Origin: Bacteroidetes bacterium MedPE-SWsnd-G2
Lineage (GTDB): Bacteria; Bacteroidota; Bacteroidia; Flavobacteriales; Flavobacteriaceae
NCBI GenBank assembly: GCA_001874335.1
Contig: MPDE01000005.1
Coordinates: forward strand, 1 to 64,000
Direction: 5' to 3'
DNA length: 64,000 bases
Shown here in pieces: positions 56,196 through 59,625 of the stretch. A program made the position numbers and the translations under genes. A model generated the notes under the pieces. That model worked only from the letters and a program-made list of their open reading frames with translations. It ran no database searches and had not been told where the DNA came from. Each line of letters opens with the position of its first letter. Position 1 is the first letter of the stretch.

Positions 56196-57974
56196 TTAAT
56201 TTATAGCATCACCTCTTAATTTTCTGAATTGTTTTCGAGCTTCAATAAAATAAATGGAATCTTGGTGTTCAAACAGAATGGCTTCATACAACGGCTTGGC
56301 TTTTTCGGCCATGTTAAAAACCTTGGCGTATAAATTAGCTAATGCAAAATAGGCATCGTCTGCAAGGATATCTTCTCTATAATTAGCAATAATATAGTTG
56401 TAATTTTCTATGGCTGAATCAAAATCTCCTTGGGCTTCAAATAATTGTGCTTGTTTAAAAAGCGCTTGGTCTTCAATAGATTCGCCTTTGTGCTCAGTTC
56501 TGATGATGTCCAGTAATTTAATAGCTTCAGAGCTGTTGTTTTGGAAGGCTAACAAATCGGCTTTAGAGTATAGTTTTAGGCTCGTTTGTAGGCTGTCCTC
56601 ATACTTATTGTCTGAGATTAGTAGTTTTAAATCTAAAGCATCATTTGCGATTAGCTGTGATGTAGACGATTTTAAAATCTTTAGTTGAGATTCAGCCCAA
56701 TCAAAATCGCCCTTATAATAACTGGTTTTAGCTACTTTAAAACGAGCTTCTTGAGATATGGTACTGTTTTTCAAATTCATTTGAATTTGTGAATAATAGA
56801 TAAGCGCCTCATTAAACTTTTCTTGATAGACTAAAACATCTCCTAATTTGAGCTTTACTCTTGATTCTTGAAACTTGTTTAAATTAAGCTTTAAACAGTT
56901 TTTAAGTTCCTTGATAGCGTCTTCTGGTTTGTTGAGGTAGAAGGCAACAAAATTACTTTTGGCAACCTGAATTAGTAAAGTAGAAGGTGTTATACCATAG
57001 GTTTTAATAAGGTTTTTATAGTTTTTGTGAATCGACTCATAATCAGATGGTTCGGCCTGAGCAACTTTTATGTCTAAAATGTATTCGTTAGCAGCTAATA
57101 TTGAATCAATATTAAGTGAGTTTTCAATAATATATTCAAAAATACTAATAGCAATGTCATATTGTTTCTTGTCACTGGCTGTTAGTCCCAATTCAAAAAT
57201 GCGGTCTAAACTTTCTGGGTTTCTTTTGTATATGGCTTTTTCTTGAGTAAAAGACTTTTTATAATCTTCTTCCTGAACGTACAACCAGCTTAATAGTTCA
57301 TTCCATTGTAAGTCTGGGGTGGTTTGGATTTTTTTGAGCAGTGTTTTTTTTAGTAAAACATTATTTTCATTGGTAGCGTCTTCAGACACAAAACCACTAA
57401 AGATGCGTTTTACATTATTTAAATATTCGGGCTTAGTAGAAAGGTAATTTAAGTAGCTGTTGTATAATGCCGATATATTGCCTTGTTCACCATAAATACG
57501 AGCGAGTTGAATATGGTAATTTAATTCCGCATTTAAAGACATGCCTTTGTTGTACGCCTGAATGGCCTCAGGTAGCAGGGAGTGGTCTTCGAATGCTTTA
57601 CCTATACTATAGGTGAAATTTGGTCTTTCATCTATTTTATCGATGGCTAACTGGTAATTAGCTTTTGCCTTGTCAAGGTTTTCTTTAAGCTGATAATTAT
57701 AACCTAATTCTACAAATAAAACAGGACTTTTGCTTAAGGTCATTCGTTTTAATAACAACTTTTCGGCTTCATCAAAATCTCCTAACTGTTGGTTAATCTT
57801 TACCAATTGAACAACATACTTGTAGCTGCCTGGGTTTTTTTCAAATAGTTTTTGGTAGGCTAATAAGGCCTTTTCAAATTGCCCCTTTTTATAATAGCTA
57901 AGCGCTAATTGATCCTTCTGAGCATAAGATTGGACCGCAAACAACAAGGATAGTATTAAAAGCAATTTTTTCAT
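56196..57974 (-). CDS. Secreted TPR-repeat protein
   Basis: 592 residues. A signal peptide (MKKLLLILSLLFAVQSYAQ) is followed by tetratricopeptide repeats almost throughout (LALSYYKKGQFEKALLAYQKLF, FELGLTASDKKQYDIAISIFEYI, ALFKQAQLFEAQGDFDSAIENYNYI). The periplasmic superhelix probably binds proteins; the partner is unknown. It is the first gene of a nine-gene minus-strand unit (TPR, GNAT, DUF4286, rsmA, mgtE, cupin, hydroxyacid dehydrogenase, DUF1801, VOC) with gaps of 0-23 bases. A 9-base inverted repeat abuts its ATG. Confidence 0.88.
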   Translation of the reverse strand: MKKLLLILSLLFAVQSYAQKDQLALSYYKKGQFEKALLAYQKLFEKNPGSYKYVVQLVKINQQLGDFDEAEKLLLKRMTLSKSPVLFVELGYNYQLKENLDKAKANYQLAIDKIDERPNFTYSIGKAFEDHSLLPEAIQAYNKGMSLNAELNYHIQLARIYGEQGNISALYNSYLNYLSTKPEYLNNVKRIFSGFVSEDATNENNVLLKKTLLKKIQTTPDLQWNELLSWLYVQEEDYKKSFTQEKAIYKRNPESLDRIFELGLTASDKKQYDIAISIFEYIIENSLNIDSILAANEYILDIKVAQAEPSDYESIHKNYKNLIKTYGITPSTLLIQVAKSNFVAFYLNKPEDAIKELKNCLKLNLNKFQESRVKLKLGDVLVYQEKFNEALIYYSQIQMNLKNSTISQEARFKVAKTSYYKGDFDWAESQLKILKSSTSQLIANDALDLKLLISDNKYEDSLQTSLKLYSKADLLAFQNNSSEAIKLLDIIRTEHKGESIEDQALFKQAQLFEAQGDFDSAIENYNYIIANYREDILADDAYFALANLYAKVFNMAEKAKPLYEAILFEHQDSIYFIEARKQFRKLRGDAIN

Positions 57975-58002
57975 ATTACTAATTTATGTAATTATTAGTA
58001 AT
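57975..58002. repeat. 9-base inverted repeat abutting the TPR gene start
   Basis: The arms ATTACTAAT and ATTAGTAAT are perfect complements separated by 10 bases, and the first arm touches the ATG at 57974. The placement suggests an operator or a translation-control hairpin for the nine-gene unit; there is no T-run. Confidence 0.5.
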
Positions 58003-58030
58003 GTACTGTGTAGTTTATGAATGTTATAAT

Positions 58031-58062
58031 AAAAAAAATGCCCAAACAAAGGTTTGGGCATT
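58031..58062 (-). terminator. Terminator downstream of serS and the split micro-gene
   Basis: The arms AATGCCCAAAC and GTTTGGGCATT with a 4-base loop are followed on the minus strand by eight or more T. It lies 27 bases after the end of the frame-disrupted micro-gene and 292 bases after serS. Confidence 0.85.
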
Positions 58063-58088
58063 ACCAGTCAAAATAAATGTGCTATCAA

Positions 58089-58227
58089 TCAATTTTTTGC
58101 AAAAAGATCCATGTATTTTGCTTTGGTATTATCGTAATTAGATCTATTGTCTAAGGATTTATAAAAATATCTTAGTTAAAAGAACAACCATGGACACCAA
58201 AATCACTATGCGTTTTATATTTTTCAT
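58089..58227 (-). pseudogene. Micro-gene for a ~45-residue membrane-anchored peptide, broken by one base
   Basis: An ATG at 58227 opens MKNIKRIVILVSMVVLLTKIFL and stops at 58159. In the next frame, open right there and lacking a start, comes YKSLDNRSNYDNTKAK and then YMDLFAKN, ending at TGA 58089. Removing one base from the run of five A (five T on the coding strand, 58163-58167) joins them into one 45-residue protein: a basic N terminus, one hydrophobic helix and a polar tail. A strong terminator follows 27 bases later. It could be a decayed gene, a sequencing error in the homopolymer, or a frameshifted gene. I know no family. Confidence 0.5.
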
Positions 58228-58353
58228 AAGTAGGTTATTCAGGGACTACAAAATTTGTAAAAAGATGGGCGATTCCCAAGTTTTTAACCGTTTTTTCGTT
58301 GAACAACCTATTTTTATAACATTTTACAGAGTGTTTGTAGGATTATATCTACT

Positions 58354-59625
58354 TTACTGAATAATGTTAAAACCTGTATAAGGTATTAGAGCTTCAGGAA
58401 TTTCAATACCATCTTCTGTTTGATAATTTTCTAAAATTCCAGCAAGAACTCTAGGTAAAGCTAAAGAGCTTCCGTTAAGCGTATGTGCCAATTCTTTTTT
58501 ACCATTGGCATTCTTAAATCTTAGTTTAAGTCTATTGGCTTGAAAAGTTTCAAAATTTGATACTGATGAAATTTCTAACCATCTATTTTGCGCGGTTGAA
58601 AATACTTCAAAATCATAAGTAATGGCAGACGTAAATCCTAAATCACCACCACATAATCTTAGAATCCTGTAAGGTAATTTAAGCTCTTGTAAAATGCCTT
58701 TAATATGGTTTACCATTTCTTCTAAAGCATCATATGAGCGGTTAGGGTGCTCTACTCTTAATATTTCTACTTTATCAAATTGATGTAAACGGTTTAAACC
58801 TCTAACGTGTGCACCATAACTTCCAGCTTCTCTTCTAAAGCAAGGAGTGTAACCTGTAATTGCAATGGGCAAATCAGATTCGTTTAACAAATCGCCTCTA
58901 AACAAGTTTGTTGCTGGTACTTCTGCAGTAGGAATTAAATACAAATTGTCTTCTGTAACATGGTACATCTGTCCTTCTTTATCAGGTAATTGTCCGGTTC
59001 CAAAACCAGAAGCCTCATTTACTAAATGTGGTAATTGATATTCGGTATATCCTGCGGCTGTATTCTTGTCTAAGAAATAAGCGATAAGAGCACGTTGTAA
59101 TCTTGCTCCTTTTCCTTTGTACACAGGGAAGCCAGCTCCAGTAATTTTGTTTCCTAAATCAAAATCAATGATATCATATTTTTTGGCTAATTCCCAGTGG
59201 GGTTGCGCATCTTGGTGCAATTCAGGTACTTCTCCCTCTTTGAAGATTTCTAAATTATCTTCGTCTGTGTTACCGGCTGGCACAATTGGATTTGGCACAT
59301 TAGGTAATTTGTATAATAACTCGTTTAGTTTTTCGGTAACGGTATTTAAGTTTTCACCAAGAGATTTAGACTGCTCTTTTAAAGCAGCTGTTTTTTCTTT
59401 AAGAATGTTAGCTTTTTGTGCTTCACCAGATTTAAAAAGAATTCCTATTTCTTTGGATAGGCTATTAGATTCAGATAATACTTGGTCTAATTCTGTTTGG
59501 CAGCGACGACGGTCTTCATCAAACTGCAATACATCTTCAATCATTTGACTCGCATCTAAGTTTCTTATTGCTAATCTCTTGATTACATCTTCTTTGTTGT
59601 CTCTAATAAAAGCTACTTGTAACAT
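58354..59625 (-). CDS. serS: Serine-tRNA ligase
   Basis: 423 residues, the normal length. An N-terminal long coiled-coil arm (~30-105, LGENLNTVTEKLNELLYK) that grips the tRNA-Ser variable arm precedes the class II core. Motif 2 lies in FRREAGSYGAHVRGLNRLHQFDKVEI, the TAEVPATN seryl-adenylate loop precedes it, and motif 3 is in LALPRVLAGILENYQ. The 5' leader is about 90 bases and contains three consecutive hairpins. A TTG-N23-TACTTTTG promoter precedes it. Confidence 0.97.
   Translation of the reverse strand: MLQVAFIRDNKEDVIKRLAIRNLDASQMIEDVLQFDEDRRRCQTELDQVLSESNSLSKEIGILFKSGEAQKANILKEKTAALKEQSKSLGENLNTVTEKLNELLYKLPNVPNPIVPAGNTDEDNLEIFKEGEVPELHQDAQPHWELAKKYDIIDFDLGNKITGAGFPVYKGKGARLQRALIAYFLDKNTAAGYTEYQLPHLVNEASGFGTGQLPDKEGQMYHVTEDNLYLIPTAEVPATNLFRGDLLNESDLPIAITGYTPCFRREAGSYGAHVRGLNRLHQFDKVEILRVEHPNRSYDALEEMVNHIKGILQELKLPYRILRLCGGDLGFTSAITYDFEVFSTAQNRWLEISSVSNFETFQANRLKLRFKNANGKKELAHTLNGSSLALPRVLAGILENYQTEDGIEIPEALIPYTGFNIIQ

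What the first reader, a model, noticed from the sequence alone, without database searches (positions are those of the whole stretch)
58089..58227. Hidden ~45-residue membrane micro-gene split by a single base in a homopolymer
Seen: a 22-codon ATG frame (basic start, hydrophobic helix) runs into a stop. The next frame is open immediately and encodes a well-formed polar tail ending 27 bases before a strong terminator. Deleting one T of the coding-strand T5 run fuses them into one 45-residue membrane-anchored peptide. Inference: a conserved small protein downstream of serS that is decayed, frameshifted during translation, or split by a sequencing error. It is too short for normal gene calling in either state.
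Basis: partly seen in the sequence, partly recalled or inferred. Interest (0 to 1): 0.6.

Follow-up and report, generated by a model that had tools for sequence, protein, structure and literature searches.

The report
Conserved membrane micropeptide with RNA element
The 22-residue membrane peptide after serS is a complete, conserved mini-gene rather than half of a broken one, and the supposed missing tail lies on a conserved RNA element that ends in a transcription terminator; neither had a passing match in the family libraries searched.

Summary
The 22-codon ORF (58227-58159, minus) is intact. Of 130 serS-downstream loci from as many genomes of the family, 83 kept matches carry it: 30 with the stop after 21-23 codons, 53 with an in-frame form of 38-48 residues. 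It evolves as protein (pN/pS 0.22). The +1-frame tail has no relative at E <= 0.01 in 209 loci, and its length is ordinary (5 of 30 short loci have one as long). The tail overlaps a conserved RNA element (58129-58031) that ends in the terminator. A covariance model finds it in 88 of 130 loci, 41 of which built the model, and strongly only once in the own genome. No Rfam family passes. In G146 and G147 the RNA stays beside the downstream TPR gene while serS is separated. Best reading: a ~215-nt transcription unit encoding a membrane micropeptide plus a 3' RNA module, perhaps dual-function. The terminator helix is firm. The inner helices are supported but not proven: a sequence-only alignment shows no covariation. 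Transcription, translation and function are untested.

The parts
58159..58227 (-). Intact micro-ORF, 22 codons plus TAA: MKNIKRIVILVSMVVLLTKIFL, basic N-terminus and one hydrophobic helix
   Evidence: found in 83 of 130 loci after two regex hits were dropped; pN/pS 0.22
58031..58129 (-). Conserved RNA element ending in the intrinsic terminator; outer bipartite stem P1, small hairpin P2, asymmetric bulge (AAUAGCA in most relatives, GAUAGCA in the window)
   Evidence: R1 match 95.2 bits, E 4.7e-12 (the window is one of the 41 sequences in R1), next best match in the genome E 0.2; fold z -3.61 whole, -0.72 without terminator; relatives
58069..58089 (-). Most conserved sequence block, ATTGATAGCACATTTATTTTG in the window (relatives mostly GATTAATAGCACATTTATTTTG)
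   Evidence: one match in the window, 0.02 expected with up to 3 mismatches; the 20-mer TTRATAGCACATTTATTTTG in at least 118 stretches of the genome collection, 80 returned
58037..58062 (-). Intrinsic terminator stem-loop, followed by a T-run
   Evidence: double-sided changes in 11 of 11 pairs of this helix and in 7 of 11
58092..58163 (-).
58249..58279 (-). Promoter-like pair TTG (58279-58277), 20 bases, AAATTTTG (58256-58249); predicted start near 58244 (inference)
   Evidence: read; TAnnTTTG is the -7 box given in PMC9723704; the window's AAATTTTG aligns with GAaGTTaG of relatives; not tested by experiment
58354..59625 (-). serS, upstream gene
56196..57974 (-). TPR-repeat protein with signal-like N-terminus; usual downstream neighbour

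Best explanation
Between serS and a TPR gene lies a separate small transcription unit of about 215 nt. It encodes an intact 22-residue single-span membrane micropeptide and, after its stop, carries a conserved RNA element that runs into an intrinsic terminator. Shown by comparison: conservation of both parts, protein-like evolution of the peptide, mostly single copy, fixed place. Inferred: transcription from its own promoter, translation, insertion with the basic end inside, and a regulatory role of the RNA. The likeliest mechanism is a dual-function transcript: the peptide acts at the inner membrane, while the 3' RNA (conserved bulge in a terminator-borne fold) acts by base pairing or protein binding. 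The '+1 tail' is largely this RNA read as codons.
For: Micro-ORF: 83 of 130 serS-anchored loci kept; pN/pS 0.22 in 376 close pairs against 0.67 and 9.4 in the shifted frames, and 0.27 over codons 7-21, where the finding rule asked only for a hydrophobic make-up; codon-position differences 5627/1131/8853 against a flat upstream control. RNA: R1 hits 88 of 130 loci, one each, 41 of them model members; 95 of 299 whole genomes, 94 with one match, of which three weak hits (G035, G105, G138) lie away from this locus and look spurious; one strong copy in the own genome. A 20-mer scan not anchored on serS returned 80 loci: 75 with serS directly upstream and 5, cut short upstream, with the TPR gene downstream. 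Paired cells 87.0% against 79.7% in shuffles and at most 46.1% when slid (model-fitted alignment). Promoter-like motif in 23 of 30 short and 20 of 49 long loci with RNA, 3 of 9 with RNA alone, 2 of 35 with neither, 3% of single-base shuffles. Two loci without micro-ORF have promoter motif and RNA (L093, L129).
Against: No transcript or protein data. Covariation of the inner helices P1 and P2 is seen only on alignments fitted to the model: on the sequence-only alignment A1 it equals shuffles (0.162 against 0.163). Alignment-free tests support P1 moderately (own arm better in 75% of 130) and P2 hardly (57%). Without the terminator the window's own fold is ordinary (z -0.72). The promoter motif was written after seeing the alignment and fits fewer than half of the long loci. 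The RNA could serve only as the 3' end of this mRNA.
Confidence: 0.6

Rival explanations
1. One reading: one ~45-residue membrane protein, broken by one base (decay, frameshifting or sequencing error).
For: The fused frame exists; the genome is a draft of 19 contigs and reads were not available. The fused query matched 146 of 209 loci against 140 for the head alone, a small gain.
Against: Stop conserved in 30 short loci; tail without relatives at E <= 0.01 in 209 loci. In the 299-genome search every match at E < 0.01 outside the own genome starts at residue 1 or 2; those that reach into the tail pass stops or run along other proteins' own tails. Tail length ordinary; tail overlaps the conserved RNA.
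Confidence: 0.03
2. The RNA is a cis-acting leader or attenuator of the TPR gene, with the micro-ORF as its leader peptide; read-through of the terminator is the regulated step.
For: The RNA stays beside the TPR gene where serS is kilobases away (G146, G147); four rows outside the main clade (G021, G249, G077, G287) have RNA and TPR gene without a micro-ORF found.
Against: I noticed no alternative antiterminator, but ran no search for one; a promoter-like TATATTTAC lies between terminator and TPR gene in many relatives (read); the peptide looks constrained as a hydrophobic helix, unlike leader peptides with runs of one amino acid (recalled).
Confidence: 0.14
3. Ordinary small membrane-protein mRNA with a conserved 3' end that only protects or terminates the transcript; no trans-acting RNA.
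For: Of 128 loci not chosen by the RNA, 79 of 84 with a peptide also have the RNA; the terminator is the firmest helix.
Against: 9 of 44 of those loci scored without peptide have the RNA, though at least one (G158) has a peptide-like match further off; a 20-base block outside the terminator is more conserved than termination needs.
Confidence: 0.2
4. Type I toxin: a short hydrophobic toxic peptide, silenced by RNA.
For: Size and shape (22 residues, one helix) resemble type I toxins such as Ibs or TisB (recalled).
Against: Mostly single copy at a fixed locus in dozens of genera; the ~40-residue form with a polar tail is not typical (recalled). An antisense RNA was not searched for.
Confidence: 0.06
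5. The micro-ORF is the surviving head of a once longer secreted protein, and the RNA block partly the relic of its last codons.
For: Two genomes (G146, G147) have a protein that starts like the micro-ORF (164 residues from that start) and ends RIIESFLNKI inside the RNA block; a distant one (G234) has a related protein here.
Against: Only 7 of 299 genomes match that protein at all: three strongly, at this locus, and four weakly at places I did not check. G146 and G147 are sisters inside the main clade, outside the long-form group. pN/pS suggests the head is useful now. A later fusion is as likely.
Confidence: 0.12

Closest known systems
Dual-function sRNAs that also encode a small protein (SgrS/SgrT, Spot 42/SpfP, RNAIII/hld; recalled)
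   Same: Short single transcription unit, small peptide ORF, conserved structured RNA, intrinsic terminator
   Different: No sequence relation known to me (not searched beyond Rfam); regulatory function not shown here; different phyla (recalled)
Flavobacterium psychrophilum sRNAs Rfp1-89, such as Rfp18 (PMC9723704: passages, outline with abstract, and part 1 of one section seen)
   Same: Small RNAs of the same family of bacteria, some strongly folded
   Different: The 12 of 18 passages shown give no position for Rfp18, and serS does not occur in the main text. None of the drawn genomes of a large unnamed genus, g127, which may be Flavobacterium (inferred), matches model R2. Identity with an Rfp RNA was not tested
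DUF2633 / PF11119 small membrane proteins
   Same: Weak profile match of a relative's 40-residue form over the helix, E 0.0011
   Different: 19.2 bits, below the 25-bit cut-off; the window's 22-residue form has no match
Flavo-1 (named in PMC9723704) and other Rfam motifs
   Same: RNA motif in Flavobacteriaceae
   Different: No Rfam family reached its gathering score on window 57900-58450 or on seven relatives

Membership tests
   tail 0 of 209 loci at E <= 0.01, head 140 of 209
Conserved small membrane protein downstream of serS | Same ORF at the same locus in related genera, evolving as protein | tested here: met
   83 of 130 kept; pN/pS 0.22, and 0.27 over codons 7-21. K2, N/T3, the R and a hydrophobic make-up of residues 7-22 were part of the finding rule, so their constancy is no evidence
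Small regulatory RNA with intrinsic terminator | Conserved sequence at a fixed intergenic place, ending in a terminator | tested here: met
   terminator helix has double-sided changes
Small regulatory RNA with intrinsic terminator | Inner helices supported by covariation free of the model | tested here: inconclusive
   fitted alignments yes, sequence-only alignment no, arm-swap tests moderate for P1 and weak for P2
Dual-function RNA | RNA regulates targets independently of the peptide, and the peptide is made | not testable with these tools
   needs expression and mutants
DUF2633 (PF11119) | Score above the curated cut-off | tested here: not met
   19.2 against 25 bits for a relative's 40-residue form; no match for the 22-residue form
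Known Rfam family | Score above the gathering threshold | tested here: not met
   window 57900-58450 and seven relatives, none
Type I toxin-antitoxin | Toxicity and an antisense RNA antitoxin | not tested
   no antisense search made; toxicity needs a bench test

The most novel reading that the evidence does not exclude
An undescribed dual-function RNA of one clade of Flavobacteriaceae: an old structured RNA beside a TPR gene acts as a regulator, and a membrane micropeptide gene arose inside its transcript, grew a tail in one lineage (22 to ~40 residues) and became or came from a 164-residue secreted protein in another, so that birth or reduction of a gene can be followed step by step upstream of one conserved RNA.
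Probability: 0.25. Interest if true: 0.65.

Novelty: new member of a known kind. Interest (0 to 1): 0.45.

Why it matters
It adds a conserved peptide family too short for ordinary gene calling and an RNA element without an Rfam match, both at one easily found place in many flavobacteria, where few regulatory RNAs are described. It also shows how an open frame beside a stop can look like a broken gene while it lies on a conserved RNA.

Tried and rejected
Rejected: frameshift or decay of a 45-residue gene. Rejected: the conserved block as a sigma-A promoter; its TATTTTG is one base short of TAnnTTTG, the base after it is not a fixed pyrimidine as the SM5 box needs, and the terminator follows at once (read). 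Led nowhere: default RNAalifold on the first alignment found only the terminator; Rfam; NCBIfam for the peptide. Paper searches on Flavobacteriaceae sRNA with small protein, Bacteroidetes dual-function sRNA, candidate structured RNA in Flavobacteria, and Winogradskyella small RNA: I saw listings only (titles and abstract openings), and none names such an element; one paper was opened in part, PMC9723704. Not done: PHROGs or PADLOC, structure prediction of the peptide, search for antisense RNA or antiterminators, target prediction in the whole genome.

Limits of the counts: the 130 loci are the closest by serS among 294 genomes with a serS hit, not a random draw. The micro-ORF rule (start, K2, N or T at 3, an R, hydrophobic residues 7-22) found 85; I dropped L153 (false) and L148 (odd position, otherwise a plausible peptide) by hand. 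'None' means none within the searched stretch; G158 (L048) has a peptide-like match further away. labels 136 loci: 8 added because of R1 hits and 2 of the 130 replaced by longer pieces; counts without those are the 128. In one search the rule reported a micro-ORF in 75 of 80; two of these picks (L212, L233) are not it. The one search tests used 148 of 163 sequences, 130 distinct; there P1 beat shuffled arms in 87%, and the 36-base P2 stretch had mean z -0.63 against 0.11 for an upstream control.

Full report
What was claimed. The three elements are in the sequence as described.

The head is a real gene. With the fused peptide as query, 299 genomes of the family gave matches of which the strongest mostly cover residues 1 to about 26 and often meet a stop there. 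To avoid choosing by the peptide, I anchored on serS: 294 of 299 genomes have it, and I took the downstream DNA of the 130 closest. A rule on start, basic residues and hydrophobic make-up found 85 micro-ORFs. After dropping two by hand, 30 are short (21-23 residues, 24 genera) and 53 long (38-48 residues, 47 of them 40 or 41). Between close pairs, differences fall at codon positions 1, 2 and 3 as 5627, 1131 and 8853, against a flat pattern in the 66 bases upstream. pN/pS is 0.22 in the true frame and 0.67 and 9.4 in the others; over codons 7-21, where the rule asked only for a hydrophobic make-up, it is 0.27. Positions that the rule did not fix are also conserved: L13 in 79 of 83, L10 in 76 of 83, K19 in 70 of 83. 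Pfam gives a relative's 40-residue form only a sub-threshold DUF2633 match (19.2 against 25 bits), and NCBIfam gives neither form one.

The split is not supported. Thirty short loci stop after 21-23 codons with TAA, TAG or TGA. The long form goes on in the same frame with an unrelated polar tail. The window's +1 tail matches none of 209 loci at E <= 0.01, while the head matches 140 and the fused peptide 146. Its 24 codons are not unusual: the 30 short loci have +1 tails of 2 to 31 codons, five of them at least 24.

What the tail lies on. Between the micro-ORF and the terminator, relatives share a noncoding block: CCA...CAGGATAATTGAATCAT...GATTAATAGCACATTTATTTTG..TGG and the terminator in most short loci, GTCCCCAATCGAG...TTAATAGAACATTTATTTTGGTTGG and the terminator in much of the long clade. 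A covariance model R1 from 41 of these sequences finds one copy in 83 of 100 and 5 of 30 loci, 47 of the 88 being outside the model, and in the own genome one strong copy (95.2 bits, E 4.7e-12; next best E 0.2). In 299 whole genomes it matches 95, 94 of them once. I looked at 12 outlying matches: eight lie by the TPR gene with serS upstream, while those of G035, G105 and G138 and the second match in G170 have neither in the 4-8 kb fetched and look like plain terminators at other gene ends. In 75 serS lies directly upstream; in the other five, cut short upstream, the TPR gene lies downstream. In a draw of 296 genomes of the order the second model R2 matched six, all of the same family.

How good is the structure? 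The free fold of the window and of L064, L100 and L102 gives the same plan: a two-part outer stem P1, a small hairpin P2, an unpaired bulge around AUAGC, and the terminator; L073 has the stems with a different bulge. On the model-fitted alignment of 83 sequences 87.0% of cells pair, against 79.7% in shuffles and at most 46.1% when slid; without the terminator 81.6% against 76.1%. An alternative register of P1 gives 76.4% against 72.1%. On 79 distinct rows from the pattern scan, partly the same species as in the model, 94.3% pair against 91.0%. Against this: on the sequence-only alignment A1 the inner helices show no more covariation than shuffles (0.162 against 0.163, two double changes against 2.2). 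In arm-swap tests P1 is better with its own arm in 75% of 130 sequences and P2 in 57%. The mean fold z without terminator is -1.73 over 83, but the window alone scores -0.89 or -0.72. So the terminator and the sequence block are firm, P1 is likely, P2 is open.

Transcription unit. In short-form relatives the region after serS shows a terminator-like ATCGTTGAA...TTCAACGATTTTTT, then TTTTG and, about 19 bases on, GAaGTTaG, then ~25 bases to TAACCTACTTATG. The window has TTG, 20 bases, AAATTTTG at the aligned place. The -7 box TAnnTTTG and the median 24-base leader are from PMC9723704 (part 1 of its section 15; other passages); the -33 TTG is recalled. A pattern for the promoter occurs in 23 of 30 short and 20 of 49 long loci with RNA, 3 of 9 with RNA alone, 2 of 4 long and 0 of 1 short loci without RNA, 2 of 35 with neither, and 3% of single-base shuffles; it was written after seeing the alignment.

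Which part is older? A tree of the TPR N-terminus (116 of 136 loci, midpoint root, bootstrap not settled) puts every short- or long-form row it holds in one clade of 92 rows (97/84), eight rows of which have neither part. Short forms are spread over several of its branches, long forms lie in one 54-row group, and four rows outside (G021, G249, G077, G287) have the RNA with no peptide found. In G146 and G147 serS is kilobases away and the RNA stays with the TPR gene. There the gene in the micro-ORF's place encodes a secreted-looking protein (164 residues from the shared start) whose last codons, RIIESFLNKI, lie in the RNA block; G234 has a relative of it. Whether the micro-ORF is the head of a lost longer gene, or the longer gene a later fusion, I could not decide.

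Verdict. A conserved, intact micropeptide gene with a conserved 3' RNA element, most likely one small transcription unit and possibly a dual-function RNA. Conservation is shown; expression and function are inferred.

Noticed in passing
   Followed up: partly
L295 4123-4731 (-): A distant genome (G234, serS 73% identical) has a related secreted-looking protein in the same place, ending just before the RNA element.
   Followed up: partly
window 58291-58335 (-) and the same place in relatives, e.g. L098, L037, L044: A long-loop hairpin ATCGTTGAA...TTCAACGATTTTTT after serS, conserved in short-form relatives but poorly kept in the window; likely the serS terminator.
   Followed up: no
window 58230-58236 (-) and relatives, e.g. 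L035, L083: The seven bases AACCTAC just upstream of the micro-ORF start are strongly conserved in short-form loci, although these bacteria lack Shine-Dalgarno sequences (PMC9723704); reason unknown.
   Followed up: no
L048 (G158): About 1.1 kb of other DNA lies between serS and the RNA element, and a peptide-like match lies just upstream of the RNA, so the two seem to have stayed together.
   Followed up: no
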